From contig CACYYM010000008.1 of the NCBI GenBank assembly GCA_902778625.1, forward strand, positions 1 to 64,000: 64,000 nt of DNA, written 5' to 3'. The notes beneath the pieces were generated by a model. The model searched no databases and was not told where the DNA came from. It worked only from the letters and a program-made list of their open reading frames with translations. This document shows positions 8,182 to 59,902 of this stretch, piece by piece; the stretch's first letter is position 1, and each line of letters opens with the position of its first letter. The translations under genes were made by a program, and so were the position numbers. This stretch comes from an uncultured Bacteroidales bacterium. GTDB lineage: Bacteria > Bacteroidota > Bacteroidia > Bacteroidales > Bacteroidaceae.

Positions 8182-8363
8182 CCACGCTGTGTTTGCAAAC
8201 TTGACACGTTATCTTTGGCATTTTAACACGTTAACTTTGGCATTTTAACACGTTAACTTTGGCATTTTAACACGTTAACTTTTGCATTTTAACACGTTTC
8301 GTTTTGCCCCAATCCACGTGTCGATTCTTTTCCTAATATTAAACCTTTGCCAAGATAACGTGT
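8182..8363 (+). repeat. Array A: 22-bp phased palindromic repeats
   Basis: Core pentamers ACACG (or CCACG) begin at 8182, 8204, 8226, 8248, 8270, 8292 and 8314, exactly 22 bp apart. The dominant unit is ACACGTTAACTTTGGCATTT plus TA. An inverted core (CGTGT, 8359-8363) has its palindrome centre at 8360.5, two grid steps beyond the last forward centre (8316.5). It fills the gap between the GT2 and GH92 genes, both on the plus strand. Confidence 0.95.
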
Positions 8364-8396
8364 CACATATATAAATATATATACAAAGGTTCTATT

Positions 8397-10610
8397 ATGC
8401 GCAGGGTCCTCTCTTTCTTGTTTTCTTATTTCCTTGTTACCACTATTTCCTTTGCTGAAGGTGTTACTCAGTTAGTCAATCCGTTCATGGGTACTACAAC
8501 TCTGTGGACGCCCGAGGAACTTGGATTTGTGCCCAAGCCGGGTGAACGGCAATGGGGCGCTGAAGCCTTTCCTGGTGCAGCTCTGCCGAACGCGATGGTG
8601 CAACTTACTCCTGTCACAGCCTATCGCTCAGGTTCGGGTTATCAATATGAAGACAGCCTGATTTACGGCTTCGCCCACACGAGCAAGGGACATTGGAACC
8701 TGCTTCACCTCCCCATTCTGCCCGTCACGGACGAGGGTAAGCCGACGCCTCAGAGCTATGCCTCGCCCTACGGTCACGACAAGGAGGAGGCGCATCCCGG
8801 CTACTATCAGGTCTTCCTCAAAAGATATAATGTGAATGTGGAATTGACCACCACGCTTCGTTGTGGCTACCATCGCTACACCTTCCGTAAGGGCGATAAC
8901 CGTGGCGTGCTCATCGATATTGCCCGCTCCAATAATAATCCGCGCAGATGGGAACTCAGACGTGCCCAAGAGAATAATGCCATTGAAGGCTTTCAGGACG
9001 GTGAAGGTCGCATCTACTTCTATGCCGAACTGTCGGAAGACATAGAGAGCGTGACGGAAGTGGGCAGACCTAATAGGGAAGAAGGAGGATGGACAAGGAA
9101 CGACGGCAGGGGCAGGAACTTCAGCCGTCCCGTCGGAATGGTGAAGCTGAAGAATCCAAAAGGCTCGAAACCCCTGGAACTCAAGATAGGTTTCTCGTTT
9201 GTCAGCATAGAAAACGCGAAGGAAAACCTTGAGGCAGAACTGGCTGGCAAGAGCTTCGAGCAAGTTCGGGCTGATGCTGATAAGGTGTGGAACGACATCC
9301 TCAGCCACATCCAAGTTGAGGGTGGTACTGAGGCCGACAAGCGGATGCTCTATTCGACTTTCTACAAGACATTCCTCTTCCCGCATCTCCGCACGGACGT
9401 GAATGGCGAGAGTGCCGTCGAGGGCTCATCAGGCCAGAAGCTCGGCTTCAACTACTACACAAATCCCTCGTTCTGGGACACCTATCGCAACAAACTCATC
9501 CTCTTGGGTATGGTAACGCCCGATGTGGCCCGAGACATCATTCGCAGCTGCATCGTCAGGGGTGAGGCACGAGGCGGCTATATGCCCACATTCTTCCATG
9601 GAGACCACGCCAGCACCTTCGTGGCTGGCTCGTGGCTGAGAGGCATCAAGGACTTCGACCTCAAACGTGCCTATGCCCTCATGTTGAAGAGCGCTACGGT
9701 GCCGGGAAGAGGAGGCCGTCCGTATCTGGACGAATACCTGGAGCGCGGCTGGATTTCGGAGAAAGATACCGTGAATGTCCCGACTGGAGACGAATACAAA
9801 GGCGCTGTCACAAAGACACTGGAGTTCGCCTACGACGACTATGCGACAGCCCTTGTCGCTCGCGAACTTGGGGATAAGGAGAACGAGCAGTTGCTCCTGA
9901 AACATTCGCAGAACTACAAGACGCTCTTCGACCCCTCGACAGGTTTTTGGCGCGGTAAGGTTTTACGTGATGGAAAGGGCGTTTGGATAGAGGATTTCCG
10001 TCCGAACTACCCGTATTACCAGTATCAATATCGCGAAGCAGATGCTTGGAACTCTCTCTTCTTCGCGCCTCACGACCCCACGGGAATGATTGCGCTCTAT
10101 CCCTCCAAGCAGGCTGTAGAGCAGAAACTCGATTCGCTCTTCACCGTGAAGAACGGCGGCTATCCAGCCTTCAACTGCACAGGCTATCTCGGACTTTATT
10201 GTCACGGCAACCAGCCCGGCCACAGCATCCCTTTCACTTATTACTTCATCGACAAGCAAGAGAAGGCTCAGCACGTCCTTAACACCTTGATGCACAAGTA
10301 CTACGGCATGGGAAAGGAAGGCTTGGCTTATGCAGGAATGGACGATGCAGGCGAGATGTCGAGTTGGTTTGTCCTCAACGCAATAGGCATCTACACCTAT
10401 TCGCCGGCAGATCCAGAATACATCGTGACGGTTCCGCTCTTCGATAAAGTGCACTTTACCCTCGGGAATGGAAAGTCGTTCGACATCGTCAAAGAGGGTA
10501 GTGGCGAGAAGATAAAGCGCATTACCATTGGCGGAACCCCGCTACAAGGCTGGTTCGTTAAGCATTCTGACCTGGCTGAGGGGAAGGAGCTTCGGGTAGA
10601 AACTTATTAA
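8397..10610 (+). CDS. GH92 family alpha-mannosidase, secreted
   Basis: A 737-residue exo-acting glycoside hydrolase family 92 enzyme, a calcium-dependent inverting alpha-mannosidase family. The signal peptide is residues 1-20 (SFLFSYFLVTTISFA). Family landmarks are VNPFMGTTT and the FPGAALPNAMVQLTP segment at the N-terminus, GYMPTFFHGDHAS in the middle, CHGNQPGHSIPFTYYF, and the GMDDAGEMSSWFVLNAIGIY block that carries the catalytic acidic region. The likely substrate is alpha-mannose on host or fungal N-glycans; the exact linkage is not readable. Its 3' end overlaps the convergent nhaA by 53 bp. Confidence 0.92.
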   Translation: MRRVLSFLFSYFLVTTISFAEGVTQLVNPFMGTTTLWTPEELGFVPKPGERQWGAEAFPGAALPNAMVQLTPVTAYRSGSGYQYEDSLIYGFAHTSKGHWNLLHLPILPVTDEGKPTPQSYASPYGHDKEEAHPGYYQVFLKRYNVNVELTTTLRCGYHRYTFRKGDNRGVLIDIARSNNNPRRWELRRAQENNAIEGFQDGEGRIYFYAELSEDIESVTEVGRPNREEGGWTRNDGRGRNFSRPVGMVKLKNPKGSKPLELKIGFSFVSIENAKENLEAELAGKSFEQVRADADKVWNDILSHIQVEGGTEADKRMLYSTFYKTFLFPHLRTDVNGESAVEGSSGQKLGFNYYTNPSFWDTYRNKLILLGMVTPDVARDIIRSCIVRGEARGGYMPTFFHGDHASTFVAGSWLRGIKDFDLKRAYALMLKSATVPGRGGRPYLDEYLERGWISEKDTVNVPTGDEYKGAVTKTLEFAYDDYATALVARELGDKENEQLLLKHSQNYKTLFDPSTGFWRGKVLRDGKGVWIEDFRPNYPYYQYQYREADAWNSLFFAPHDPTGMIALYPSKQAVEQKLDSLFTVKNGGYPAFNCTGYLGLYCHGNQPGHSIPFTYYFIDKQEKAQHVLNTLMHKYYGMGKEGLAYAGMDDAGEMSSWFVLNAIGIYTYSPADPEYIVTVPLFDKVHFTLGNGKSFDIVKEGSGEKIKRITIGGTPLQGWFVKHSDLAEGKELRVETY

Positions 10611-11922
10611 GCATCAGACAACCTACCAGCGCACTCGCAATTGTGCCGCAAAGGATGCCCAACTTGGCGTCGTTCAGCAGGTCGGCATGTTCGGCAGAGG
10701 GATAGCTCAAAGCCGCCATGAACATGCTTACAGTAAAGCCTATTCCGCAAAGCATACAGATGCTCGCAAACGATTTCCAGTTGGCGTTCTCGGGCATTTG
10801 CATGAGGCCCAACTTGATGCCAAGCCACGAGAAACTCAGCACACCACAGAATTTGCCGATTAGCAAACCGAGGAATACGGCCAAACCCACGCCCGAGAAG
10901 AGACTCATCAGACTCATTCCTGCCAGGTTCACGCCCGCATTCGCGAAGGCAAAGAGCGGAATGATTTGGTAGTTGACAGGCATTTTCAGTACGTCCTCCA
11001 TATCTTGAAGCGGGCTGACGAGATGGTCAGAAGCAGACTCGACGCTCTTCAGCAAAGCGATTTCCTCGTCGCTCAGCACAACGGGCTTGTTGCGGTCCGC
11101 ACGCGTAACGACAGTCGAGGGGAAATGGTCGAGCTGATGACGGATGCGCTCGATGTAGAACTTCGTGCCCCTCGGAATGTTGGCAGGAATGCAGAAGGCC
11201 AGCACTACGCCTGCAATGGTGGCATGAATGCCGCTTCCAAGCATGAAATACCAAAGAACGAGGCCCGTATTGAGATAGAAGGCTTTCGTGCGAATGCCTC
11301 GCCAATTACCTATGCAAAGCACTACAACAGTCAGTGCAGAAGCAAGCAGATACCAAAGGTTGAGGTTCTCGGTATAGCGGATTGCAATGACGATGATGCC
11401 ACCCAAATCGTCCGCTACGGCCAGGGCTGCAAGGAATATCTTCAAACCAATAGGACAGCGTTTGCTGAAAATACTCAGGCACCCCAGCGAAAAGGCGATA
11501 TCCGTTGCCATGGGAATCGCCATGCCTCGCTCCATGACCGGGTCTTTCGGACAGACCAGAAAGAATACTATCACGGGCAGAATCATGCCTCCACAAGCTC
11601 CTATGACTGGCGCAAGGGCTTTTTTTATGCTCGACAACTCGCCGCAAAGTACTTCTCGCTTTATCTCGAGACCAACACTCAGGAAGAAGATGGCCATCAG
11701 AAAGTCGTTGATGAAGGCTCCCAAATGCATGGCATGCCCGTTATGGCTGAACAGATTGAAGCCGCCAATGCTTAGACTCACGGGCAGTTCCCAGAACTTT
11801 CGATAGAGGTCGCCCCAAGGTCCATTCGCTATGATGAGGGCGGCAATGGTGGCTATTACGAGAAGTACGCTACTGCTAACGTACTTGCGAAGCATGCTGA
11901 TAAACGGATAATTGTTTTCCAT
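10558..11922 (-). CDS. nhaA: Na+/H+ antiporter NhaA
   Basis: A 454-residue inner-membrane antiporter exchanging Na+ for H+, with about a dozen hydrophobic segments. The ion-binding signature is complete: ATDIAFSLG with its Asp, and AVADDLGGI with the paired aspartates. MENNYPFISMLRKYV was taken as the start because it directly precedes the first helix and follows a TAACTTTG promoter; the longer frame runs upstream through the promoter and is untypical. Its last 17 codons overlap the end of the GH92 gene on the other strand. Confidence 0.93.
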   Translation of the reverse strand: MENNYPFISMLRKYVSSSVLLVIATIAALIIANGPWGDLYRKFWELPVSLSIGGFNLFSHNGHAMHLGAFINDFLMAIFFLSVGLEIKREVLCGELSSIKKALAPVIGACGGMILPVIVFFLVCPKDPVMERGMAIPMATDIAFSLGCLSIFSKRCPIGLKIFLAALAVADDLGGIIVIAIRYTENLNLWYLLASALTVVVLCIGNWRGIRTKAFYLNTGLVLWYFMLGSGIHATIAGVVLAFCIPANIPRGTKFYIERIRHQLDHFPSTVVTRADRNKPVVLSDEEIALLKSVESASDHLVSPLQDMEDVLKMPVNYQIIPLFAFANAGVNLAGMSLMSLFSGVGLAVFLGLLIGKFCGVLSFSWLGIKLGLMQMPENANWKSFASICMLCGIGFTVSMFMAALSYPSAEHADLLNDAKLGILCGTIASALVGCLMLNKFLPEAPSPQPGQNA

Positions 11923-11949
11923 ATTGATTGTTCCTACAATAATCGAGTG

Positions 11950-11957
11950 CAAAGTTA
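11950..11957 (-). promoter_or_regulatory. Bacteroidota promoter -7 box (nhaA)
   Basis: Reverse strand reads TAACTTTG, 27 bp upstream of the nhaA start. Confidence 0.65.
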
Positions 11958-12001
11958 CTGCTTTTTTCATTAAGATGAATGCAGAAAACGAAAAAATTGT
12001 G

Positions 12002-12009
12002 TATCTTTG
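12002..12009 (+). promoter_or_regulatory. Bacteroidota promoter -7 box (L-galactose operon)
   Basis: TATCTTTG lies 23 bp before the ATG of the aldo/keto reductase and is divergent from the nhaA promoter 45 bp away. Confidence 0.65.
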
Positions 12010-12032
12010 CATGAGAAATAACCTTATTCGAC

Positions 12033-12977: not shown

Positions 12978-12997
12978 ATTTCTATTTACAATCTTCA

Positions 12998-14889: not shown

Positions 14890-14940
14890 GGACTACTCCA
14901 GCGTAAATCCTCAACTATCCATACGTCGCTGTCCATTTAA

Positions 14941-15028
14941 GCACGCTAAGTTGCTCAACTCAACACGTTAAAATCATCAACTCAACACGTTAAAATCATC
15001 AACTTAACACGTTAAAATGTCAAACACA
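14941..15028 (+). repeat. Array B: 22-bp phased palindromic repeats
   Basis: Cores start at 14941 (GCACG), 14963, 14985 and 15007 (all ACACG), exactly 22 bp apart. The filler is AAATCATCAACT-like and unlike array A. An odd palindrome AACACA-C-TGTGTT follows at 15023-15035, slightly off the grid. The array ends 42 bp upstream of the DPP IV promoter. Confidence 0.92.
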
Positions 15029-15069
15029 CTGTGTTGAAATTGCAAACGAAGGCTTTCTCGTGTCTTTTC

Positions 15070-19408: not shown

Positions 19409-19446
19409 AAAAGTTTAAAGTTTAGAGTTTAAAGTTTAGAGTTTAT
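19409..19446. repeat. TTTAAAGTTTAGAG low-complexity tandem repeat
   Basis: AAAGTTTAAAGTTTAGAG-type 14-bp units occur almost perfectly 2.5 times. A near-reverse-complement version (AACTTTAAACTCTAAACTTT) occurs in front of the DUF3127 gene at about 58843-58875. Both lie beside promoters. Confidence 0.7.
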
Positions 19447-22219: not shown

Positions 22220-22261
22220 CGAAAAAAAGTTAAGAATTAAGAAAGGTGCATCAAGATTTTT

Positions 22262-22312
22262 AACGTGTTACGCTGGCCATCGTAACGTGTAATGTTTGGC
22301 ATTATAACTAGC
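22262..22312 (-). repeat. Array C: short 22-bp phased repeat, inverted orientation
   Basis: CGTGT at 22264-22268 and 22286-22290 are 22 bp apart, in the contexts TAACGTGTTACG and TAACGTGTAATG. A degenerate third slot (AACTAGCTGT) is at 22306-22315. This is the smallest array in the window. Confidence 0.8.
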
Positions 22313-22331
22313 TGTGCTTCGAATCACACTG

Positions 22332-22732: not shown

Positions 22733-24088
22733 ATGGCTCAGAAACCAAGTATTCCAAAAGGTACGCGAGACTTCGGTCCAGCCGAAATGGCAAGGCGTAA
22801 CTATATTTTTAATACGATTCGCGAGGTCTATTCCCTCTATGGCTTTGAGCAAATAGAGACTCCTGCCATGGAAAACCTCTCAACCCTTATGGGAAAATAT
22901 GGCGAAGAAGGCGACAAACTGCTCTTCAAGATTCTTAATAGTGGCGATTTCCTTCGTGGAATCAGCCCAGACGACCTTGCAAACGGCGCAACTGGTCACC
23001 TCGCAGCTCAACTTTGCGAAAAAGGCTTACGATATGACCTGACCGTTCCCTTTGCGCGTTATGTCGTTCAGCATAGGGAAGAGTTGACCTTGCCGTTCCG
23101 TCGCTATCAGATTCAACCGGTTTGGCGTGCCGACCGTCCGCAGAAGGGACGCTATCGCGAGTTCTATCAATGCGATGCAGACGTGGTTGGCAGTGACTCC
23201 CTGCTTTGCGAAGTAGAATTAATGCAGATTATCGATACCGTGTTCCAGCGATTTGGCATTCGCGTCTGCATCAAAATCAACAACCGCAAAATCCTTAGCG
23301 GCATAGCTGAAATGATTGGTGAGGCCGACAAGATTGTGGACATTACCGTTGCCATCGATAAGCTCGACAAGATAGGGCTCGATGCCGTGAACGAAGAACT
23401 GCGCGAGGACGGCATCAGCGAGGAAGCTATCCAGAAGCTTCAGCCCATCATCAACCTGAGCGGAACGAATGCCGAGAAGATTGCCACAATGCGCGAAGTG
23501 CTGGCCGGCAGCGAAGTGGGGCAGAAAGGCATAGACGAAGTGGAATACGTCATCTCTAAACTCTCAACTCTACACTCTCAACTGGAATTAGACTTGACCT
23601 TGGCTCGCGGACTCAACTACTATACGGGCTGCATCTTCGAGGTCAAGGCGCTGGACGTTGAGATTGGCAGCATAACAGGCGGCGGCCGATACGACAATCT
23701 GACCGGCATCTTCGGTATGCCTGGCTTGAGCGGTGTTGGCATCAGCTTTGGCGCAGACCGAATCTATGATGTCCTGAATCAGCTCGGCCTCTATCCCGAA
23801 GCTGTCACGACCGCCACACAACTGCTCTTCATCAACTTCGGCGATAAGGAGACTGCCTACTCTCTTCCCATCATCGCCAAGCTTCGCGGACAAGGCATCC
23901 GTTGCGAGATATATCCAGATGCCGCCAAAATGAAGAAGCAGATGCAGTACGCTAACCAGAAAGCGATTCCTTTCGTCGCTATGACTGGCGAAACGGAAAT
24001 GGCCGCAGGAAAGGTGATGCTCAAGAACATGACAAGTGGCGAACAACAGCTCGTTTCGCCTGAAGAACTGGCAAGCATCATTCTTTGA
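22733..24088 (+). CDS. hisS: Histidyl-tRNA synthetase
   Basis: A 451-residue class II synthetase that charges tRNA-His. Motif 2 is visible around [29 protein letters not shown], and the histidine-specific segment [14 protein letters not shown] precedes motif 3 ([11 protein letters not shown]). The C-terminal anticodon-binding domain begins near residue 355. It heads a run of six same-strand genes with short gaps or overlaps. Confidence 0.97.
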
Positions 24089-24113
24089 AATTTGAAATTT
24101 AAATTTTGAATTG

Positions 24114-27693: not shown

Positions 27694-27711
27694 ATTATAT
27701 ATTCGCACATT

Positions 27712-27945
27712 ACACACGCTAACTTCGAAAACTTAACACGTTAACTTCGAAAACTTAACACGCTAACTTCGAAAACTTAACACGTTAACTTCGAAAACTT
27801 AACACGTTAACTTCGGAAACTTAACACGCTAACTTCGAAAACTTAACACGTTAACTTCGGAAACTTAACACGCTAACTTCGAAAACTTAACACGTTAACT
27901 TCGGAAACTTAACACGTGAAGCTTTAGCTCGACGCAAGTCAACTT
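27712..27945 (+). repeat. Array D: longest 22-bp phased array (10 units plus one)
   Basis: ACACG cores start at 27714 and then every 22 bp to 27912 (10 units). Units alternate between CACGTTAAC and CACGCTAAC, and between CTTCGAAAAC and CTTCGGAAAC, giving partial 44-bp superunits. An eleventh core of different sequence, TCGAC-GCAA-GTCAA (27929-27942), is centred 1 bp off the grid. It fills the convergent gap between lpxH and the amylase gene. Confidence 0.96.
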
Positions 27946-33178: not shown

Positions 33179-33299
33179 AATAATTTCGGAGAAAGGACAA
33201 AACAAATTTCGAAGAATGTTGTTGAATATGATGTCAAACATCTAATTGATAGACATCTGCTGCTGTTCAACTCGTTCTGCCATGTCTCGCTGCAAAACT

Positions 33300-33376
33300 C
33301 AGCACGCTAAGTTCGTTATACATACATGTATCTATAATTATACATACATGTACATTTAATTATACATACATGTATA
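33300..33376 (+). repeat. Array G: 22-bp phased palindromes with divergent TACATGTA cores
   Basis: One degenerate classic core, CAGC-AC-GCTAA, is centred at 33304.5. Three TACATGTA palindromes follow, centred at 33326.5, 33348.5 and 33370.5, each in a unit TTATACATACATGTATCTAT-like of 22 bp. The period and register are the same as in the ACACG arrays although the arms are entirely different. Confidence 0.88.
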
Positions 33377-33527
33377 TATAATCAACATAGCCAGCGAAGT
33401 TATATAAGCTATCATTTTATGACATCAATTTCAATGTGGCGAGTAAACGTAAATATTGTTGCGCAATTTCTACTAAACATAACGTCCATTATCATCATAA
33501 TACTTGATTCTTATACATTATATAATA

Positions 33528-33612: not shown

Positions 33613-34800
33613 TTAGATAATTCCAAGTTCTTTGAAGACTTTCTTCAGCTTCACGACTGATTCGTCAACTTGTTCGCGTGTGTGATTTGCCATCAAAGCA
33701 TATCGAACAAGTGTGTCCTGCGGTGCACAAGCTGGCGGAATCACAGGATTGATGAAGACGCCTTCGTTGAATGCCTTTGCAACAGCCATGAAAGTCTTAT
33801 CTGTGTCGCGCACATAAAGTGGAATGATGGGACTCTCTGTGTCACCAATCTCGAAGCCTTCTTCGCGGAAACGCTTAAGTGCGTAGTTCGTTACACTCCA
33901 GAGAGCTTCCAGTCTTTCTGGCTCATTCTGGATAATATGAAGTGCCTCGCGAGCTGCAGCTGTGGCTGCTGGCGTACAACTTGCGCTAAAGATATAGGTA
34001 CGAGCCGTATGCCTGAGCCAGTTGATGACACTGCTGTCTGCTGCGATGAAACCGCCGATGGAAGCCAAACTCTTAGAGAAAGTTCCCATGATGAGGTCGA
34101 CATCTTTAGTCAGTCCAAAGTGGTTGCAGACACCTCTACCCTGCTTGCCAAAGACACCGATACCGTGAGCCTCGTCTACCATAATGGCGACGTTCTGATA
34201 TTTCTTCTTCAGCTCGACGATTTCGGGCAGTTTGCAAAGGTCGCCTTCCATGCTGAAGACACCATCTACGACAACCAGCTTGACACGTTCAGGCTCACAC
34301 TTCTGGATCATCTTCTCGAGGTCATCCATATCGTTGTGCTTATACTTGAGCTGCGTGGCAAAGCTGAGACGACGGCCATCAACAATACTTGCGTGGTCGC
34401 GGTCGTCGCAGATAACATAGTCGTTACGGTCAACAAGCTGACTGATAACGCCGCTATTTACGGTGAAACCTGTTGCAAAGCAGAGCGCCTCGTCCTTGCC
34501 GACAAACTCTGCCAGTTCTTTCTCGAGCTGAACGTGAATGTCGAGCGTGCCGTTGAGGAATCGGCTTCCTGCACAACCGCTGCCGTATTTCTGCATAGCT
34601 GCGCAACCAGCATCAATGACGCGTTGGTCGCCAGTCAAACCTGTGTATGCATTCGAGCCAAACATCAGCACACGTTTGCCTTCCATGATGACTTCTGTGC
34701 CTTGTTTGCCTTCTATCTCTCGGAAATAAGGGTAAATACCCTGCGCCATGAACTCCTGTGGGAGCGTGTATTTAGCGCATCTGTCTTGTAATAATCCCAT
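33613..34800 (-). CDS. spt: Serine palmitoyltransferase (alpha-oxoamine synthase)
   Basis: A 395-residue PLP enzyme of the alpha-oxoamine synthase family. The cofactor lysine is Lys243 in GTFSKSLASIGG; Asp209 and His212 are in VDEAHGIGVFG, and SGCAGSRFLNGT is the family glycine-rich loop. The N-terminus GLLQDRCAKYTLPQEFMAQG matches the Bacteroidota SPT branch, which condenses serine with an acyl-CoA to start sphingolipid synthesis, rather than KBL or BioF. A lipid kinase starts divergently 178 bp away. Confidence 0.88.
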   Translation of the reverse strand: MGLLQDRCAKYTLPQEFMAQGIYPYFREIEGKQGTEVIMEGKRVLMFGSNAYTGLTGDQRVIDAGCAAMQKYGSGCAGSRFLNGTLDIHVQLEKELAEFVGKDEALCFATGFTVNSGVISQLVDRNDYVICDDRDHASIVDGRRLSFATQLKYKHNDMDDLEKMIQKCEPERVKLVVVDGVFSMEGDLCKLPEIVELKKKYQNVAIMVDEAHGIGVFGKQGRGVCNHFGLTKDVDLIMGTFSKSLASIGGFIAADSSVINWLRHTARTYIFSASCTPAATAAAREALHIIQNEPERLEALWSVTNYALKRFREEGFEIGDTESPIIPLYVRDTDKTFMAVAKAFNEGVFINPVIPPACAPQDTLVRYALMANHTREQVDESVVKLKKVFKELGII

Positions 34801-34853: not shown

Positions 34854-34959
34854 CAAAAAAATAATTGAACATTGAACAATGTACATTGAAAATTATTCCT
34901 TATTCCTTATTTCTTTTACCTTTTAACCATTTAAGCTTTTAACATATTCACTTTTTTCG

Positions 34960-38709: not shown

Positions 38710-38789
38710 CGAAGAAGCATGCAAAAACACAAATAAATTCGTGCTTTTTCGTATTACCTTTTTAAACTAGTCCTGAGGAGTTGCCAAAC

Positions 38790-38890
38790 TTCACACGTTA
38801 AGTTGCAAAACTTCACACGTTAAGTTGCAAAACTTCACACGTTAAGTTGTCAAACTTCACACGTTAAGTTGCGAAACTTCACACGTTAAG
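38790..38890 (+). repeat. Array E: 22-bp phased palindromic repeats
   Basis: ACACG starts at 38793, 38815, 38837, 38859 and 38881, all 22 bp apart. The unit CACACGTTAAGTTGCAAAAC plus TT forms a longer palindrome AACTTCAC-AC-GTTAAGTT with one mismatch. It lies 81 bp upstream of the rarA promoter box. Confidence 0.95.
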
Positions 38891-38957
38891 TTTTACACAT
38901 CCCCTTGATATTGTTTTTCATTATTCGTTATTACAATTACAGATTGCCATATAACAA

Positions 38958-40067: not shown

Positions 40068-40111
40068 CAAAATATTTCTTAATTCTTAACTCTTAATTCT
40101 TAATTTCTTTG

Positions 40112-42762: not shown

Positions 42763-42769
42763 GGCAAAA

Positions 42770-42848
42770 CTTAACACGTTAAGTTCGTCGACTTAACACG
42801 TTAAATTGCTCAACTTAACACGTTAAAAAAATTTTTTAGCACGTCGAT
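42770..42848 (+). repeat. Array F: 22-bp phased palindromic repeats
   Basis: ACACG starts at 42774, 42796 and 42818 (22 bp apart) in CTTAACACGTTAA contexts. A fourth, GCACG at 42839, is 1 bp short of the grid. It lies 94 bp upstream of the ftsK promoter. Confidence 0.92.
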
Positions 42849-42936
42849 TTTTTCAATTTGGCACTTCTAAATTGTTAAATAGGCTTGGCTAAAGATGCTT
42901 CCATACGTTAATAAAAAGAAAAACTTATGTTTTCTT

Positions 42937-42967
42937 TTTGTTGTCTGCGCGCTTTTTTGTATTTTTG
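42937..42967 (+). promoter_or_regulatory. Complete Bacteroidota promoter (ftsK operon)
   Basis: TTTG (42937-42940) and TATTTTTG (42960-42967) are 19 bp apart. The ftsK ATG follows 21 bp later, which favours the start at 42989 over an upstream in-frame codon. Confidence 0.75.
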
Positions 42968-42988
42968 CACCCGCTAATAATATATAAT

Positions 42989-45490
42989 ATGGACGCGAAG
43001 AAAAGCGTAAGACAATATAAGCCTGCGAGCAAAACTCCTGCAAGGCGCAAAAAGAAAGAGCAATCCAGTTGGGCTCGTTCGCTCAGTTGGTTCCGCTCTA
43101 ACATTAAGGACAACGAAGACGTTGACCCGAAGAAACGTGTCGAACACGGTGATAATCTGCGTTTCGTATGGGGCGCAGTTCTCGCCATTCTCTCGTTGGG
43201 AATCCTTATTGCCCTCGTCTCTCACATCTTTACGGGTGCGGAAGACCAGAAATATGTCACGAGTGAATCCTATACGGCGGCAAATTGGTTGGGGCGTTGG
43301 GGCTATGAAGTTGCTCATTGGCTAATGGATAACACCTTTGGTGTGTCAAGCATTCTCATCCCTGTTCTCATGCTTGCAACAAGCATTCGCATCATGGGAT
43401 TGGCAAAAGTAAGACTTCATCTTTGGTTTCTCAACTGCATGATAATCATGGCTTGGGTCTCTGCCTTTGCCGCTTACATAGTGCCTTTCATCCCTGGAGC
43501 CCAGAACTCTTACATCCTTTGGGAAGGCATGATTGGTCAGAACGAATTGCATTTCCTCAGAGAAAAAGTGGGAAGTTTTGGCACGCTCCTCATCTTCGTT
43601 CTTTCTGCCCTACTCTATCTCTTCTATCTCAGCGATGAAGCCATCACTTTTATCCGTCATCTTGTCGTCAGGAAGAAAGATGAAGAAGCCGAAATAATCG
43701 AAGAGGAACCTGAAGCAGAACAAGAAGCTTTCACGCCTTTGATGCCTGATAGCGAAGACGAAGGCCCGAAAGAAGAAGAGGAAGAGGAAGTTGAAAAGCC
43801 TATCCCATTCTCGGATGAAGCCACTCAAACCGCGACTACCATTAGCTTCGACGATGATCCGTTGGCTCCCCTGAAAGGCTTTGAAGAGCAAGAAGACGAG
43901 GATAACATCACTGTTGTTGTTGGTCAAGACCCGGAAAAGGCGAACCTTTCCGACGGACGAGCCCTTGAACCTTACGATCCGAAACTCGATCTGGAGAACT
44001 ACAAATACCCCACAATCGACCTCCTCACCCATTATGATAACACGACGAATGCTATCGATATGGAGGAACAACGCAACAACAAAAACCGCATCAAAACGGT
44101 GTTGAGCAACTTCCGCGTCGAAATCCTCGACAACACGAAAGCAACCATCGGTCCGACCATCACGCTCTACGAGATTACGCCTGCTCCTGGCATTCGCATC
44201 AGCACGATTCGTAACCTAGAAGATGACATTGCCCTGAGCCTAAGTGCCCTTGGCATTCGTATCATCGCTCCCATTCCAGGCAAAGGAACTATCGGCATAG
44301 AAGTACCGAACCTCAAGCCTCAAATGGTTTCGATGGAAAGCATCTTGAACAGCCGTAAGTTCCAAGAAACGGATTATGAGTTGCCGATGGCTCTTGGTAA
44401 AACCATAACAAACGAAGTCTTTATCGCAGACCTGACCAAGATGCCGCACTTGCTTGTGGCTGGTGCAACAGGTCAAGGCAAGTCTGTAGGCTTGAATGTC
44501 ATAATTACTTCATTACTTTATAAGAAGCATCCTGCCGAGCTGAAACTGGTGATGATTGACCCGAAGAAGGTCGAGTTCAGCCTTTATGCGCCAATAGTTA
44601 ACCATTTCCTTGCACAAGTTAAGGGTAACGAAGATGTGGAAGAGCCCATCATAACCGACGTCAACAAGGTGATTCAGACACTAAAGAGCCTCTGTATCGA
44701 GATGGACCAACGCTATGACCTGCTCAAGAAAGCCCATGCAAGGAACGTCAAGGAATACAACGAAAAGTTCCGCGAACGCCAGCTTAATCCGCAGAATGGA
44801 CATAGGTTTATGCCTTATATCGTTGTCGTTATTGACGAGTATGGCGACCTCATCATGACTGCAGGCAAGGAGATTGAGCTTCCTATTGCTCGTATCGCTC
44901 AGCTCGCAAGAGCGGTTGGTATCCACATGATTATCGCGACTCAACGTCCTACGGCTAACATCATTACCGGTACCATCAAGGCAAACTTCCCGGCTCGAAT
45001 GGCGTTCAAAGTCACAACAGGCGTTGACAGTAAGACAATCCTCGACCGAACCGGAGCAAATCAGCTTGTTGGCAAGGGCGATATGCTTTTGATGACAGGC
45101 TCAGAACCTGTTCGAATCCAATGTGCATTCATCGATACGAATGAGCTTGAAGACATCGTTCATCATATCGCAAAACAGCAGAGTTACACGTCTCCCTACC
45201 TCTTGCCAGAAGTTCCGCTTGAAGGAGAAGATGACAGCAGCTTGGGTGATGTAGACATGACGCATCTCGACCCGATGTTCGAGGATGCAGCACGCATGAT
45301 AGTCAGCGAGCAAAACGGCAGCACAAGCATGATTCAACGTAAGTTTGCTATCGGTTACAATCGCGCAGGACGCCTGATGGACCAGCTCGAGAAGGCTGGC
45401 ATCGTAGGTCCCGCGAAAGGCAGCAAGCCCCGCGAAGTACTTTGTGTTAGCGAAGAACAACTGATGATGATAATGGATAACCTACGTTAA
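42989..45490 (+). CDS. ftsK: DNA translocase FtsK
   Basis: An 833-residue septal DNA pump. Four membrane helices (about 55-210) are followed by an acidic linker (about 230-310), a RecA-type motor with Walker A GATGQGKSVG and Walker B YIVVVIDEYGD, and the C-terminal gamma winged helix (SMIQRKFAIGYNRAGRLMDQLE) that reads KOPS. Short for an FtsK, as usual in this phylum. First gene of a seven-gene same-strand run. Confidence 0.95.
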   Translation: MDAKKSVRQYKPASKTPARRKKKEQSSWARSLSWFRSNIKDNEDVDPKKRVEHGDNLRFVWGAVLAILSLGILIALVSHIFTGAEDQKYVTSESYTAANWLGRWGYEVAHWLMDNTFGVSSILIPVLMLATSIRIMGLAKVRLHLWFLNCMIIMAWVSAFAAYIVPFIPGAQNSYILWEGMIGQNELHFLREKVGSFGTLLIFVLSALLYLFYLSDEAITFIRHLVVRKKDEEAEIIEEEPEAEQEAFTPLMPDSEDEGPKEEEEEEVEKPIPFSDEATQTATTISFDDDPLAPLKGFEEQEDEDNITVVVGQDPEKANLSDGRALEPYDPKLDLENYKYPTIDLLTHYDNTTNAIDMEEQRNNKNRIKTVLSNFRVEILDNTKATIGPTITLYEITPAPGIRISTIRNLEDDIALSLSALGIRIIAPIPGKGTIGIEVPNLKPQMVSMESILNSRKFQETDYELPMALGKTITNEVFIADLTKMPHLLVAGATGQGKSVGLNVIITSLLYKKHPAELKLVMIDPKKVEFSLYAPIVNHFLAQVKGNEDVEEPIITDVNKVIQTLKSLCIEMDQRYDLLKKAHARNVKEYNEKFRERQLNPQNGHRFMPYIVVVIDEYGDLIMTAGKEIELPIARIAQLARAVGIHMIIATQRPTANIITGTIKANFPARMAFKVTTGVDSKTILDRTGANQLVGKGDMLLMTGSEPVRIQCAFIDTNELEDIVHHIAKQQSYTSPYLLPEVPLEGEDDSSLGDVDMTHLDPMFEDAARMIVSEQNGSTSMIQRKFAIGYNRAGRLMDQLEKAGIVGPAKGSKPREVLCVSEEQLMMIMDNLR

Positions 45491-51379: not shown

Positions 51380-51511
51380 AAACGTCAAAATTGTTGGCGT
51401 AACATGCGACGATTCCAAACGTCGCACGCGGAAATTGCAATCGCAGCACGCTGTGTTTTATTTTTCGCCAGCGGAAATCAGGCAACTCAGCACGTCAAAA
51501 AGTGTGCAAAA
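51380..51511 (+). repeat. Array I: strongly degenerate 22-bp phased repeats
   Basis: Cores on an exact 22-bp grid: AAACG 51380, ACATG 51402, GCACG 51424, GCACG 51446, CCAGC 51468, GCACG 51490. Units differ greatly between cores, so this was recognisable only from the period. Confidence 0.72.
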
Positions 51512-54680: not shown

Positions 54681-54693
54681 TTTGCAACAAAAG

Positions 54694-54733: not shown

Positions 54734-54753
54734 ATTATATTGGCTCAACGCTT

Positions 54754-55668: not shown

Positions 55669-55669
55669 G

Positions 55670-56863
55670 TTATCTCTTAACTATACATTCAACTATGTCT
55701 TCTGCAACCTCTCGCTTCGTCTTAGTGTCGTATGCTGTAAGACCATTATGGCGATCAATGATGGTCACCTTGTTCGTATCAACGCGGAAGCCTGCGCCCT
55801 TGTCCTGAAGACTGTTAAGAACAATGAGGTCGAGATTCTTGCGCTCCATCTTGTCCTTAGCATTCTTCAGTTCGTTGTCTGTCTCAAGCGCAAAGCCAAC
55901 AAGTACTTGCTTCTTTTTCTTTTGGGCGCCAAGAGCAGCGGCAATATCCTGCGTTGGCTGAAGCTTGATGGTCAAGTCGTCGCCCTTACGCTTTATCTTC
56001 TTATCGACAGTCGTCTTTGGCGTGAAATCAGCAACTGCTGCGCAAAGAATGGCAATGTCAGTTTTTGGGAAATGCTTCGTTGCTGCCTCATACATCTGCT
56101 GAGCACTCTCAACATCAATGCGCTTAATGTTAGGATGGCTTGTCTGCAACATCACAGGACCACAGATAAGCGTCACCTCTGCACCTTGCTCAGCACAAAC
56201 CTCGGCAAGGGCAAAGCCCATTTTACCGCTACTATAGTTGCCGATGAAGCGAACGGGATCAATCTTCTCGTAAGTGGGGCCAGCCGTGATGAGCACTTTC
56301 TTGCCTGCCAGTTTCTGCTGCTTAGCGAAGTATTGTTCAAGCACTTCAACAATCTTCTCGGGCTCTTCCATGCGTCCTTTGCCTTCCAGTTTGGAAGCAA
56401 GGAAACCAGTTCCAGGCTCGATAATGTGGTTGCCGTAGCTCTGTAACTTCTGCAGGTTGGCCTGAGTTGAAGGGTGAGCATACATATCGAGGTCCATAGC
56501 CGGAGCAACAAACACAGGAGCTTTCATGCTTAAATATGTAGTGACAAGCATGTTGTCGGCTATGCCATTTGCCATTTTTCCAATAGTGCTTGCCGAAGCA
56601 GGAGCGACGAGCATCGCATCTGCCCAAAGCCCAAGACTCACATGAGAATGCCAACTGCCATCTCTTCTGTCGAAGAACTCACTGACGACTGGTTTCTGCG
56701 TCAACGTAGCCAACGTGAGAGGCGTGATGAACTCCTTTGCTGAAGGCGTCATCACAACCTGCACTTCGGCTCCTTTCTTGATGAGAAGCCGGGCAAGGAT
56801 GCAAGCTTTATAGGCTGCTATGCTTCCTGTTATGCCAAGTACTATCTTCTTATTTTCCAGCAT
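55670..56863 (-). CDS. coaBC: Bifunctional phosphopantothenoylcysteine decarboxylase/synthetase
   Basis: A 397-residue fusion making 4'-phosphopantetheine for coenzyme A. The CoaC flavoprotein half has GITGSIAAYKA and APASASTIGKMANGIADNM, and the CoaB half has ITAGPTYEKIDPVRFIGNYSSG and AAVADFTPK. Start MLENKKIVLG overlaps the exonuclease gene by 14 bp. Confidence 0.94.
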   Translation of the reverse strand: MLENKKIVLGITGSIAAYKACILARLLIKKGAEVQVVMTPSAKEFITPLTLATLTQKPVVSEFFDRRDGSWHSHVSLGLWADAMLVAPASASTIGKMANGIADNMLVTTYLSMKAPVFVAPAMDLDMYAHPSTQANLQKLQSYGNHIIEPGTGFLASKLEGKGRMEEPEKIVEVLEQYFAKQQKLAGKKVLITAGPTYEKIDPVRFIGNYSSGKMGFALAEVCAEQGAEVTLICGPVMLQTSHPNIKRIDVESAQQMYEAATKHFPKTDIAILCAAVADFTPKTTVDKKIKRKGDDLTIKLQPTQDIAAALGAQKKKKQVLVGFALETDNELKNAKDKMERKNLDLIVLNSLQDKGAGFRVDTNKVTIIDRHNGLTAYDTKTKREVAEDIVECIVKR

Positions 56864-57617
56864 ATTTAAGTGCAAGACGTTCAAGCGTTTGTTTCGTGTT
56901 CATTGTGAAGTCACCTTGAAGCATCCAAGCCTTATAGTTAGGATCTTTTTTGAGCACATCCTTCACAGCTTGACCTTTGTATTTGCCGAAGTTGATTACC
57001 TCGACGCCTTTATCGTCATAAACAAATCGGCAGGCAAGGTCAACACCTTTTTGTATCTGACTGAAGTCGGCAAGATAGGCAACATCATTCTTCAGGTCAT
57101 CATATCTGTCGAGTTGAGCTTCGAGCACTTCAAGCGTGGCTCTTGTGTCGGCCAATGCGCTATGAGCATTCTCGAGATTCTTCCCACAATAGAACTTATA
57201 GGCAGCCACAAGTGTACGCTGTTCCATCTTGTGGAAGATGTTCTGCACATCTATCAGCTTCTTCTCGTTGACGTGGATGTCGATACCTAGCAAGGCGAAC
57301 TCCTCAGCTAGCATCGGCACATCGAACTTGTTGCTGTTATAGCCAGCTAAGTCGCAACCCTCGAATACCTTCGCCAGTTCTTCAGCCTTCTCTGCGAACT
57401 TGGGACAATCTTTGACATCTTTGTCTGTGATGCCTGTCACTTCGCTCGATTCCTTAGATATATGCATGCCAGGATTGAAGCGAAGTGTCTCTGCCCTTTC
57501 GTTTCCGTTTGGCTCGAGGCGAATGTAGCAGAGCTCTACGATGTGGTCCTTGCCAATCGTCAAGCCTGTCGTCTCGAGGTCGAAGAAGATGATTGGCCGC
57601 TCGAGCTTGAGTTTCAT
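56850..57617 (-). CDS. DnaQ-like DEDDh 3'-5' exonuclease
   Basis: A 255-residue exonuclease, probably the epsilon-type proofreading subunit or a relative. ExoI FFDLETTGL, ExoII LAGYNSNKFDVPML and ExoIII AHSALADTRATLEVL supply D-E-D-D-H. The C-terminal 70 residues (INFGKYKGQAVKDVLKKDP) form a small extra domain found in Bacteroidota homologues. It sits between dnaN and coaBC. Confidence 0.92.
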   Translation of the reverse strand: MKLKLERPIIFFDLETTGLTIGKDHIVELCYIRLEPNGNERAETLRFNPGMHISKESSEVTGITDKDVKDCPKFAEKAEELAKVFEGCDLAGYNSNKFDVPMLAEEFALLGIDIHVNEKKLIDVQNIFHKMEQRTLVAAYKFYCGKNLENAHSALADTRATLEVLEAQLDRYDDLKNDVAYLADFSQIQKGVDLACRFVYDDKGVEVINFGKYKGQAVKDVLKKDPNYKAWMLQGDFTMNTKQTLERLALKYAGK

Positions 57618-57620
57618 TGT

Positions 57621-58745
57621 TTAATCTTCTACGCGCATCGGCATCAGCAGCATCAGCACCTCGTCTTCCGGGTTCTCGTCGGCGGGACGAATTACACCAG
57701 GACGGCTTGGATCGGCCACTTCTATTTTGAGCATTTCGCTGTCAAGAATGCCTGCTATCTCAAGCAGGAATGTGCAGCTGAAGCCAATGCTGATGGGGTT
57801 GCTCGTGTATTCGCAAAGGATGAACTCCTCAGCTCTTGTCGCATATTCATTGTCCTGACCGGTCAGCTTGATGTTGTTGTTGCCCAGTTCGAGCTTAACA
57901 AGTCCACTACTCTGGTTGCAGAAGACGCTGACACGCTTCAGGGCACTAATCAAGGCTTGACGGTCAACGCGAGCTGAGAAGGGATTGTTCTCGGGAATAA
58001 CGGCGTTGTAGTTCGGATAGCGACCTTCGATGAGGCGGAAGTGCATCACCATATCGGCAGAAGAGATGGTTGCCTTCTCGTTGTCGAAAGCAATGGTGAT
58101 GTTCTCTTCTTCCTTCGTCAGGACAGCCTTCAAGATAGCCGACACCTTCTTCTGCAGGATGAAGCCAGCAGTCAGACCACTCTTTACGGTGCGGTTTGTA
58201 TTGCGGACAAGTTTGCGACCATCTGTGCCAGCGAAGACGATGCTATCAGGCTTGATGTCAACATAGATGCCGTTCATCACCAGACGAATCTCGTCGTTAG
58301 CGGTAGCGAAGAGGCAACGATTGATACCATTAAGCAGAACGCTTGCAGGCAGTTCAATGCGAGTTGCATCGTCGCCAACAGTCTTTGCCATTGGATAAGG
58401 CGCAGCGTCCATAGCCATCACAACAAATGAACCGGAGTTGTGAACGACCTTTACCTCCTGCGTATCAGGGTTGTAACCGATGTTAAGAGGCTGTTCTGCG
58501 AGTTCCTTCATCGATTCGATGAGCGTCTTTGCAGGGATGCAGAAGCGAGCGTCGCCAGTTTGTTCGATTGTGGGAACGGTTGTGATGAAATACTTCTCAC
58601 TGTCGGAAGCTGTGATGGTAATAGTGCCACCAGCAACATCGAGCAGGAAACAATCCAGAATAGGCATAGAGTTCTTGCTTGCCATCACTTTGCTGGCAGC
58701 AGTCAAACGGCCATAGAAAGCCGTGCTTGAAACTTTGAAATTCAT
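57621..58745 (-). CDS. dnaN: DNA polymerase III sliding clamp beta subunit
   Basis: A 374-residue three-domain clamp, beginning MNFKVSSTAFYGRLTAASKV and ending DEVLMLLMPMRVED with the conserved P-M-R. First gene of the dnaN-exonuclease-coaBC-porD unit; gap to the exonuclease start is 3 bp. Confidence 0.96.
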   Translation of the reverse strand: MNFKVSSTAFYGRLTAASKVMASKNSMPILDCFLLDVAGGTITITASDSEKYFITTVPTIEQTGDARFCIPAKTLIESMKELAEQPLNIGYNPDTQEVKVVHNSGSFVVMAMDAAPYPMAKTVGDDATRIELPASVLLNGINRCLFATANDEIRLVMNGIYVDIKPDSIVFAGTDGRKLVRNTNRTVKSGLTAGFILQKKVSAILKAVLTKEEENITIAFDNEKATISSADMVMHFRLIEGRYPNYNAVIPENNPFSARVDRQALISALKRVSVFCNQSSGLVKLELGNNNIKLTGQDNEYATRAEEFILCEYTSNPISIGFSCTFLLEIAGILDSEMLKIEVADPSRPGVIRPADENPEDEVLMLLMPMRVED

Positions 58746-58778
58746 ATTATTTTAAGTTATGTATATATTTTCGCACGA

Positions 58779-58786
58779 CAAAGATA
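58779..58786 (-). promoter_or_regulatory. Bacteroidota promoter -7 box (dnaN operon)
   Basis: Reverse strand reads TATCTTTG, 33 bp upstream of dnaN. Confidence 0.6.
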
Positions 58787-58881
58787 TGTTTTTTCCTTAC
58801 GATAACAAAGAAAAGACAAGAAAAAAACACGCAAAAAGAAAAACTTTAAACTCTAAACTTTAAACTTTAAACTTTATTTTG

Positions 58882-58889
58882 TACCTTTG
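58882..58889 (+). promoter_or_regulatory. Bacteroidota promoter -7 box (DUF3127 gene)
   Basis: TACCTTTG lies 30 bp before the ATG at 58920. An upstream in-frame codon (58887) would overlap the promoter and is rejected. Confidence 0.65.
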
Positions 58890-58919
58890 CAGCCAAAATC
58901 ATTAAAACAAGACAAACAA

Positions 58920-59345
58920 ATGGAATTAACAGGAAAGATTATTGCAGAGTTCAACGAAAGAGGTGGTGTTAGCAGCAGAACTGGTAACGAATGGAAGGCT
59001 AAGTCGTATGTTATAGAAGTACCAGGAGACTATCCTCGCAAGTGTGTCTTCGACGTTTTCGGTGCTGATCGTCTTCAAGCCTTCAACATTCAGATTGGCG
59101 AAACGCTGACGGTTCACTTCGACATTGATGCTCACGAGTATAACGGACGCTGGTTCAACGACATTCGCGCCTTCCGTATCGATCGCGGACAAGCAGCTCC
59201 CACAGCCACGACTGATGCTGCTCCTGTTGCTCCGACAGCCGCTCCTGCACCTCAAGCCGTTTCAGAAGCTCCAGCTCCTCAGGCTGAGGCAGCTCCCACG
59301 ATACCTTTCGAGGCACCATCTGCAACGGACGATCTGCCGTTTTAG
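58920..59345 (+). CDS. DUF3127 SSB-like OB-fold protein
   Basis: A 141-residue protein. Residues 1-85 (MELTGKIIAEFNERGGV ... FDVFGADRLQAFNIQIGE) match DUF3127, a small OB-fold-like domain. About 85-130 is a Pro/Ala-rich linker, and the chain ends in ATDDLPF, very close to the DDDIPF tip with which bacterial SSB recruits partners. This fold-linker-tip layout is that of SSB. It diverges from dnaN. A DNA-binding role is inference. Confidence 0.87.
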   Translation: MELTGKIIAEFNERGGVSSRTGNEWKAKSYVIEVPGDYPRKCVFDVFGADRLQAFNIQIGETLTVHFDIDAHEYNGRWFNDIRAFRIDRGQAAPTATTDAAPVAPTAAPAPQAVSEAPAPQAEAAPTIPFEAPSATDDLPF

Positions 59346-59357
59346 TCCACAGTTCAT

Positions 59358-59436
59358 AGTCCATAGTCCATAGTTGTTTTTCACACAGACACAAGGCGCA
59401 AGCCAACTATGAACTCATAACTATGGACTATGGACT
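59358..59436. repeat. 18-bp perfect inverted repeat upstream of tRNA-Arg
   Basis: AGTCCATAGTCCATAGTT (59358-59375) and AACTATGGACTATGGACT (59419-59436) are exact reverse complements 43 bp apart. The arms are themselves 9-bp tandem repeats. Could form a large hairpin after the DUF3127 stop; no T tract follows, so terminator function is uncertain. Confidence 0.9.
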
Positions 59437-59441
59437 TTCAA

Positions 59442-59515
59442 GGCTCCGTAGCTTAGCTGTATAGAGCGTCAGATTCCGGTTCTGAAGGTCCTGGGTTAGA
59501 ATCCCAGCGGAGTCA
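59442..59515 (+). tRNA. tRNA-Arg (anticodon CCG)
   Basis: Acceptor GGCTCCG (59442-59448) pairs with CGGAGTC (59508-59514, one G-T), discriminator A at 59515. The anticodon stem TCAGA/TCTGA encloses TTCCGGT with anticodon CCG at 59476-59478, reading codon CGG. The T stem is CTGGG/CCCAG with loop TTAGAAT, an A in place of the usual C of TTC. The 3' CCA is not encoded. Confidence 0.95.
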
Positions 59516-59528
59516 CTTCGAAATGATT

Positions 59529-59557
59529 GGGCTGCAGTTTATCTGCGGCCCTTTTTG
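59529..59557 (+). terminator. Terminator after tRNA-Arg
   Basis: GGGCTGCAG (59529-59537) pairs with CTGCGGCCC (59543-59551) with one G-T pair, followed by TTTTTG. Confidence 0.85.
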
Positions 59558-59783
59558 TTTAGTAAACAATCCTATACCTTTATATTTTAATATGTGTGAG
59601 CAAATCAACTACGCAGAAATTGTCATGGAAATTCATGATTTTGACCCTATTTCCTTGCGATATTTGGAAGCGAAAAGCGTCGAGGCTGAATAAAACGCAG
59701 AATTTGGCGGTTTAAGCGATGTTTGATTATCAGAGACTTAACACTAGATATGCATGTAATAATAGTGGTTTATGCACAAAAAC

Positions 59784-59902
59784 AACGTGTTTCGAGCCAC
59801 ATTTCAACGTGTTAAAATGGGATTTTCGACGTGTTAAGTTGGCAAACTCGACGTGTCGAGTTGACAAACTTAACGAGTGAAGTTTCAAAACTCGACATTT
59901 CA
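59784..59902 (-). repeat. Array H: 22-bp phased palindromic repeats, inverted orientation
   Basis: CGTGT starts at 59786, 59808, 59830 and 59852, then CGAGT 59874 and CATTT 59896, all 22 bp apart. The fourth unit is a perfect palindrome CTCGAC-GT-GTCGAG. Classic TTAAC and variant CTCGAC arms are mixed within one array while the spacing stays exact. Confidence 0.93.

What the first reader, a model, noticed from the sequence alone, without database searches (positions are those of the whole stretch)
8182..59902. A dispersed family of intergenic palindrome arrays locked to a 22-bp period
Nine intergenic regions carry tandem cores exactly 22 bp apart: A 8182-8363, B 14941-15028, C 22262-22312, D 27712-27945, G 33300-33376, E 38790-38890, F 42770-42848, I 51380-51511 and H 59784-59902. 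The archetype is AACTTAAC-AC-GTTAAGTT followed by a 4-bp spacer. Filler is uniform within an array but differs between arrays, so the arrays are homogenised locally, while the period is shared everywhere. 22 bp is about two helical turns, so every palindrome faces the same side of the DNA, as expected for dimeric protein binding. The period is not a multiple of three, there are no long unique spacers, and loops are too short for good RNA hairpins, which argues against coding, CRISPR and multi-hairpin RNA. I do not know a described system with these properties. Inference: a phased binding platform for an unidentified nucleoid or regulatory protein.
Basis: partly seen in the sequence, partly recalled or inferred. 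Interest (0 to 1): 0.93.

Follow-up and report, generated by a model that had tools for sequence, protein, structure and literature searches.

The report
Evenly spaced 22-bp palindrome platforms
In two related draft bacterial genomes, more than a hundred sampled gaps between genes hold short stacks of mirror-image DNA words repeated every 22 letters; the stacks lie more evenly along the chromosome than chance, mostly keep the 22-letter step where the words differ, and would likely serve as landing platforms for a DNA-binding protein that is not yet identified.

Summary
A profile finds 62 arrays in 439 kb of this genome and 52 in 394.5 kb of a relative (shuffles 0 and 0; reversed DNA 2 and 0). 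Steps are 22 bp in 213 of 227 and 187 of 188 cases. Arrays are intergenic (1 of 114 inside an ORF), lie near stop codons and are frequent between convergent genes. The TTAACACGTTAA word is one of several: arms differ between arrays yet stay complementary (245 of 376 pairs; 176 +/- 10 when dealt at random), and three unrelated words stand at the 3' end of one gene across six species, always at 22 bp. Indels inside arrays are rare although adjacent units differ at 6-8 of 22 bases. Arrays also repel each other along the chromosome (gap CV 0.50 and 0.42; random-gap null 0.70-0.81). REP tags and transposase, CRISPR spacers and strand-specific RNA folding are not supported. I favour platforms kept for their geometry, likely bound by a dimeric protein acting as a barrier between transcription units. 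No binder was found, arrays come and go between species, and a mobile repeat is the main rival.

The parts
8198..8303 (+). Array A, 5 units, word TTTTAACACGTTAACTTTGGCA; between GT2 glycosyltransferase and GH92 genes, co-directional
14935..15040 (+). Array B, 5 units; between alcohol dehydrogenase and DPP-IV peptidase genes, co-directional
22257..22318 (-). Array C, 3 weak units; divergent gap beside the HisRS gene; G027 and G035 also have arrays in the orthologous gap
27708..27923 (+). Array D, 10 units, TTAACACG(T/C)TAACTTCGAAAACT; convergent gap between metallophosphoesterase and SusG-like amylase genes; only a remnant of about 1.5 units in G008, a TACATGTA array in G035
33295..33400 (+). 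Array G: one CACG unit, then TATACATACATGTATATATAA units in the same 22-bp phase; at the 3' end of the aminotransferase gene 33613-34800(-)
38765..38892 (+). Array E, 6 units, AACTTCACACGTTAAGTT + 4; between MgsA/RarA-type AAA+ and PheS genes
42768..42872 (+). Array F, 5 units; starts about 6 bp after the stop codon of a metallo-beta-lactamase-fold gene, upstream of ftsK; G036, G008, G027 and G012 have an array on this side of ftsK, G005 and G035 on the other side, G076, G013 and G020 none found nearby
51396..51457 (+). Array I, 3 weak units; before the ValRS gene; no array in the orthologous gap of G008 and G027
59779..59906 (-). Array H, 6 units, mixed words (TTAACACG, CGACACG); between a tRNA gene and the tex gene

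Best explanation
These are intergenic arrays of about 4-6 palindromes held at a 22-bp step and spread more evenly than chance along the chromosome, and they would likely act as platforms on which a dimeric DNA-binding protein, not yet identified, lines up on one face of the helix to form a barrier or anchor between neighbouring transcription units. Shown here: the period, the dyad symmetry kept with different arm sequences, the rarity of indels, the position near stop codons, the under-dispersed unit number and the even spacing. Inferred: that this geometry is kept by selection; that a protein reads it; that occupied platforms limit read-through or supercoil exchange between genes, or anchor the nucleoid every 6-8 kb. 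Since words and exact sites change between species while density and spacing are alike in the two genomes measured, I infer that coverage of the chromosome matters more than control of particular genes.
For: Profile arrays 62 (G000) and 52 (G008) against 0 and 0 in shuffles, 2 and 0 in reversed DNA. TRF, without a motif: period 22 is 53 of 77 intergenic repeats of period 14-45 in G000 and 45 of 59 in G008; 21-23-bp repeats are 13.0, 11.9, 3.9, 2.5 and 0 per 100 kb in G000, G008, 13 other genus members, 5 genomes of other genera of the family and 10 other families. Non-22 steps: 14 of 229 and 1 of 217; 1 gap per 2.5 substitutions in 35 array-free orthologous gaps. In-phase centres beyond the arrays. 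Arms complementary across arrays: G000 245 of 376 (permuted 176 +/- 10, max 213), six other clade members 117 of 192 (69 +/- 7). Three words at one gene end across six species, period 22 throughout. Units per array: mean 4.66, variance 1.71; mean 4.62, variance 1.16. Even spacing: gap CV 0.50 (null 0.70 and 0.81) and 0.42 (null 0.77 and 0.79); gaps under 3.5 kb 8 of 65 (18.4 and 23.9 expected) and 3 of 50 (15.7 and 16.0 expected), 2000 draws each; with profile arrays alone CV 0.48 and 0.40 against 0.72 and 0.76. Orthologous 3' flanks share arrays more than chance: 27 both, 32 and 21 one only, 109 neither, Fisher P 2.8e-5 (comparisons not independent).
Against: No binder found: HU (PF00216) and ParB (PF02195) copy numbers do not follow the arrays. 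One protein binding all arrays would have to accept arms as different as TTAA, GCCG and ATAC. Arrays come and go: of 80 array-bearing orthologous 3' flank comparisons 53 have it on one side only. G008 arrays have a recurring terminal unit, as a discrete element would. Decayed units at array edges show no arm covariation (256 units, z -2.9 to +2.0), and G008 arms show no excess (207 of 304 against 205 +/- 3). In G008 the in-phase excess three to five units out is slight (4 against 1.3, another phase reaches 5). In-register duplication or exchange between arrays would also keep phase without selection. Position near stop codons is shared with REPs (PMC3733652, passages read) and says little about function.
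Confidence: 0.42

Rival explanations
1. A non-autonomous mobile or selfish repeat (REP-, BIME- or MITE-like) that lands near stop codons, is moved by an unknown enzyme and is thinned by selection or target immunity.
For: Presence/absence in orthologous gaps: 6 both, 10 only G000, 5 only the relative, 148 neither; for example a 3-bp gap against 168 bp with a 6-unit array, and 2 bp against 152 bp with an array. Recurring terminal unit in G008, which I read as AAAACRACYSCAGTTACG. Narrow unit number. REPs also lie beside stop codons and between convergent and co-directional genes (PMC3733652, passages). Target immunity (recalled from Tn7 and Mu) could give an exclusion zone.
Against: No comparable ends in G000 (edge unit 4.3 bits against 12.1 in G008). 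Y1_Tnp has no match in G000, G005, G008, G012, G020 and G036, though it has in G013, G027, G035 and G076. Different words at the same gene end would need several element families with the same period. G008 keeps a remnant at site D, so some near-empty sites are contractions. I know of no mobile repeat that is evenly spaced.
Confidence: 0.3
2. A mutational product: fold-back synthesis and slippage at palindromes makes and erases such arrays, which are merely tolerated at gene ends.
For: Alternating 11-bp half-units in opposite orientation give both the palindrome and the 22-bp period; G000 arrays have their own arms; a near-empty site holds a remnant.
Against: In the clade the period does not vary with the word; few indels although neighbours diverge; a common CACG/CGTG centre (95 of 128 TRF arrays, where the axis choice favoured C..G centres); even spacing; no 21-23-bp intergenic repeat in 151 kb of ten other families at the threshold (with a lower one, lists one 23-bp repeat of two copies in G039).
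Confidence: 0.15
3. RNA-level elements: multi-hairpin 3' UTRs or terminators.
For: Position after stop codons; mean folding-energy z from -2.1 to -2.5.
Against: Sense strand folds better in only 15 of 35 and 8 of 22 co-directional arrays; centre orientation 14:14 and 8:10 relative to transcription; hairpin-plus-T-run terminators are about as common with arrays as without (25/69 and 14/51 in G000; 18/50 and 10/37 in G008); words at one site range from A+T-rich to G+C-rich.
Confidence: 0.07

Closest known systems
REP / BIME and CGTC- or GTAG-tagged palindromic repeats (PMC3733652, passages read)
   Same: Short intergenic palindromes in many copies, near stop codons, between convergent and co-directional genes, families with alternative complementary stems, uneven lineage distribution.
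   Different: No GTAG or CGTC enrichment (fewer than in shuffles), Y1 transposase absent from six array genomes including this one, 22-bp step, several words within one genome, even chromosomal spacing.
BrickBuilt MITE minisatellite of Porphyromonas gingivalis (PMC4596501, abstract and passages read)
   Same: Bacteroidales (recalled placement), tandem repeats without spacers, 23 nt, always intergenic, narrow host range.
   Different: One 23-nt consensus, leader and tail with terminal inverted repeats, 19 copies in ATCC 33277; here 22 nt, several words, no common ends in G000, 68 loci in 439 kb.
PINSR, 188-bp repeat of Prevotella intermedia (PMC4755523, abstract and passages read)
   Same: Intergenic, 177 and 184 copies, sublineage-specific, no terminal inverted repeats.
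   Different: Described as one 188-bp consensus; whether it is a 22-bp palindrome array could not be tested, as its sequence is in a figure that is not held.

Membership tests
REP/BIME (RAYT-linked) | Y1 tyrosine transposase (PF01797) in the genome | tested here: not met
   no match in G000, G005, G008, G012, G020, G036; matches in G013, G027, G035, G076; 22 of 61 genus genomes match in all
REP/BIME (RAYT-linked) | GTAG or CGTC tag beside the stem | tested here: not met
   GTAG 21 and CGTC 50 in G000 arrays, 40 and 70 in shuffles; 17 and 23 against 52 and 59 in G008
REP/BIME (RAYT-linked) | Intergenic, near 3' ends, rarer between divergent genes | tested here: met
   median 38 and 21 bp from stop codons, 142 and 169 bp from start codons; 9 of 60 and 9 of 46 arrays with both neighbours known are divergent
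MITE (BrickBuilt type) | Terminal inverted repeats and target duplications | tested here: inconclusive
   recurring end unit in G008 only (12.1 against 4.3 bits); target duplications not resolvable between species this diverged
MITE (BrickBuilt type) | One conserved 23-nt repeat | tested here: not met
   22 nt, several unrelated words
CRISPR array | Unique spacers between constant repeats | tested here: not met
   spacers of 4 nt, recurrent (TGCA, GGCA, TGCC)
Intrinsic terminator arrays | Strand-specific hairpin plus U-run | tested here: not met
PINSR | 188-bp consensus sequence | not testable with these tools
Described RNA families | Match to an Rfam model | tested here: not met
   only a tRNA at 59442-59515

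The most novel reading that the evidence does not exclude
A chromosome-organising system written in geometry rather than in sequence: any palindrome will do, provided it repeats at 22 bp in a stack of about five and one stack sits every 6-8 kb between genes. The words drift and are replaced between species while period, symmetry, position and spacing persist, which no bacterial repeat or nucleoid-protein site known to me does.
Probability: 0.27. Interest if true: 0.93.

Novelty: new variant of a known kind. Interest (0 to 1): 0.74.

Why it matters
Dispersed intergenic palindromes are usually read as selfish repeats or RNA hairpins. Here the conserved quantity appears to be spacing, at two scales (22 bp within arrays, 6-8 kb between them), while sequence changes. 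If confirmed, this would give a visible, computable mark of chromosome organisation in a group of gut bacteria, and a way to ask what fences neighbouring transcription units.

Tried and rejected
Hairpin covariation at single-unit level: 256 in-phase non-core neighbours, no covariation. RNA strand bias: none. Replacement of terminators: none. RAYT mobilisation: rejected for this genome. HU and ParB as lineage-specific binders: copy numbers do not follow. Phage or plasmid origin: array D has no blastn match; one viral contig holds one pair (L223, not followed). Protein-coding repeat: period not a multiple of 3, arrays intergenic. Integron attC, LytTR and parS likenesses were thought of from memory and not pursued beyond the ParB count. 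The skeleton AAC-N4-C-NN-G-N4-GTT looked clade-specific (10 of 61 genus genomes, the same ten with FtsK identity of 80% or more among the 57 with an FtsK match; in 393 order genomes only two single hits besides G000), but sister genomes turned out to carry 21-23-bp palindromic arrays with other words. Long array-free stretches: one (G000 C4 144.6-164.2 kb) holds VapE-like and BT4734-like genes among ordinary ones; not pursued. Literature: searches (open-licence PMC only; some lists capped) showed no description of such arrays; I read abstract and passages of PMC4596501 and PMC4755523, passages of PMC3733652 and PMC5608340 (nothing relevant in the last), and only listings of the rest.
Full report
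Where it is. The window is contig C8, bases 1-64000, of an unnamed 3.08-Mb, 39-contig draft genome (G000).

Checking the observation. All nine arrays are present. In a scan that uses no motif, over periods 14-35, chains of three or more 2-nt-gap palindromes appear at period 22 (4 chains; mean 0 in 40 shuffles) and once at 33. TAACACGTTAA occurs 111 times in the genome and its reversed control never. A profile learned from strict arrays finds 62 arrays in 439 kb of G000 and 52 in 394.5 kb of G008; shuffles give 0 and 0, reversed DNA 2 and 0, at the same threshold. TRF, independent of the profile, gives period 22 for 53 of 77 intergenic repeats of period 14-45 in G000 and 45 of 59 in G008. The profile was trained on these same genomes, so its counts are descriptive; the shuffle, reversal and TRF results are the controls.

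Anatomy. The commonest unit is CAAACTTAA-CACG-TTAAGTTTG, with a 4-nt spacer between 18-nt cores. Other words in the same genome include GCCG-CACG-CGGC, TTCA-CACG-TGAA and ATACATACATGTAT; centres are CACG or CGTG in 95 of 128 TRF arrays of nine clade genomes, with an axis choice that favoured C..G centres. With the axis fixed by the centre only, arms are complementary in 245 of 376 positions in G000 against 176 +/- 10 when right arms are dealt among arrays, and in 117 of 192 against 69 +/- 7 in six other clade members; G008, which mostly uses one word, shows no excess (207 of 304 against 205 +/- 3). Thus palindromy is kept while sequence changes. Against this, decayed units at array edges show no covariation. 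Units per array are under-dispersed: mean 4.66, variance 1.71 in G000; mean 4.62, variance 1.16 in G008.

The period looks constrained. Between adjacent units G000 has 5.9 substitutions per step and 14 non-22 steps in 229; G008 has 7.8 and 1 in 217. Array-free orthologous gaps in the same clade show one gap opening per 2.5 substitutions (35 alignments, 60% identity or more; such alignments overcount gaps). CACG-like centres outside the recognised array, up to five units away, are in phase 33 times against 4.4 per other phase in G000 and 12 against 2.0 in G008; three to five units out the figures are 13 against 2.5, and 4 against 1.3 with another phase at 5. Array G joins a CACG unit and CATG units in one phase. 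Caveats: the scan penalises steps other than 22, and in-register duplication or exchange keeps phase without selection.

Place in the genome. Of 60 G000 arrays with both neighbours known, 35 are co-directional, 16 convergent and 9 divergent; in G008 22, 15 and 9, plus one inside an ORF. Convergent gaps of at least 120 bp number 18 in G000 and 13 in G008; since arrays lengthen gaps, these ratios overstate occupancy. Median distance is 38 and 21 bp to stop codons, 142 and 169 bp to start codons; in co-directional gaps the mean position is 0.27 and 0.30 of the way from stop to start. This resembles REPs (PMC3733652, passages read).

Even spacing. On contiguous stretches (G000 439 kb, 68 array loci; G008 409.7 kb, 55 loci) distances between arrays average 6.3 and 7.5 kb with CV 0.50 and 0.42. 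Random choice of gaps matched for orientation type and with the same 1-kb merging gives 0.70 (gaps of 90 bp or more) and 0.81 (all gaps) for G000, 0.77 and 0.79 for G008; at most 1 of 2000 draws is as even. Distances under 3.5 kb are 8 of 65 (18.4 and 23.9 expected) and 3 of 50 (15.7 and 16.0 expected). Pair counts show repulsion below 3-4 kb and no long-range order. With profile arrays alone the CVs are 0.48 and 0.40 against nulls of 0.72 and 0.76. Arrays that I missed would tend to raise the CV. My gene finder is simple, and both genomes are drafts of which I saw about 14%.

Relatives. The AAC-N4-C-NN-G-N4-GTT triple occurs in 10 of 61 genus genomes, reversed control 0; among the 57 genomes with an FtsK match these are exactly the ones with FtsK identity of 80% or more. 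Sister species with FtsK identity about 60-70% carry 21-23-bp arrays with other words: CAACACGTTG in G077, TGCCATACTATGGCA and others in G017, TGAGTCCATGTGCGTGGACTCA in G029. Intergenic 21-23-bp repeats per 100 kb: 13.0 (G000), 11.9 (G008), 3.9 (13 other genus genomes, 797 kb), 2.5 (5 genomes of other genera of the family, 200 kb; 5 repeats), 0 (10 other families, 151 kb, with a lower threshold, lists one of 23 bp), 1.0 (E. coli K-12, 100 kb, one of 21 bp). A lag test agrees for the clade (140 of 352 gaps at lag 22) and the genus, but shows no lag-22 excess in the family's other genera (5 against 4.3), so that last extension is weak.

Turnover. In 169 comparable orthologous gaps 6 have arrays on both sides, 10 only in G000, 5 only in the relative, 148 neither. 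Examples: convergent genes 3 bp apart at 4133 have a 168-bp gap with a 6-unit array in G008; array D is a remnant of about 1.5 units in G008 and a TACATGTA array in G035. At the 3' end of the aminotransferase 33613-34800, G000 has the TATACATG word, G005, G036, G027 and G008 the CACG word, G035 CAGAGGGACGCGTCCCTCTG, all at 22 bp. Orthologous 3' flanks: both 27, G000 only 32, other only 21, neither 109, and 54 left out as too short on both sides; odds ratio 4.4, P 2.8e-5, comparisons not independent.

Mechanism. A mobile repeat explains presence/absence and the recurring end unit of G008, but not the even spacing or three unrelated words at one site, and the obvious enzyme is missing here. RNA roles lack strand bias. 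A mutational process explains new words but not constant period, centre and spacing. A phased protein platform explains period, symmetry and spacing; its weak points are the missing binder and the diversity of arms. I therefore hold it at 0.42, with the mobile repeat at 0.30.

Noticed in passing
window 19410-19445, 23550-23583, 24084-24110, 34864-34943, 40076-40105, 58841-58876, 60024-60050 and others: A second dispersed family: 7-8-bp tandem repeats (AAAGTTT, TCAACTC, TTTCAAC) mostly in gaps, 28 of period 7 in 439 kb of G000; in G005 and G035 such repeats appear to run into the first codons of the gene after ftsK.
   Followed up: no
window 4780-4856: Exact 30-bp tandem repeat (2.6 copies, 100% match) inside ORF 4136-5014(-).
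   Followed up: no
window 166-353: 69-bp repeat within ORF 19-996, of the kind seen in leucine-rich repeat surface proteins (recalled).
   Followed up: no
L223: One viral contig (IMGVR_UViG_3300021255_002830) holds a TAACACGTTA pair at 22 bp, perhaps host DNA beside a provirus.
   Followed up: no
G000:C4:144600-164200 (L148, L149): 19.4-kb array-free stretch with VapE-like and BT4734-like genes, perhaps recent mobile DNA without arrays; the PINSR paper notes the same for that repeat (passage).
   Followed up: partly
G008 arrays, e.g. L157, L158, L162: Terminal units share their own consensus, read as AAAACRACYSCAGTTACG, with CTGCAG, CCCCAG or CCCTAG centres, unlike inner units.
   Followed up: partly
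window 57621-58745 and 42938-45490: dnaN and ftsK lie in the window, so part of this stretch is core chromosome.
   Followed up: no
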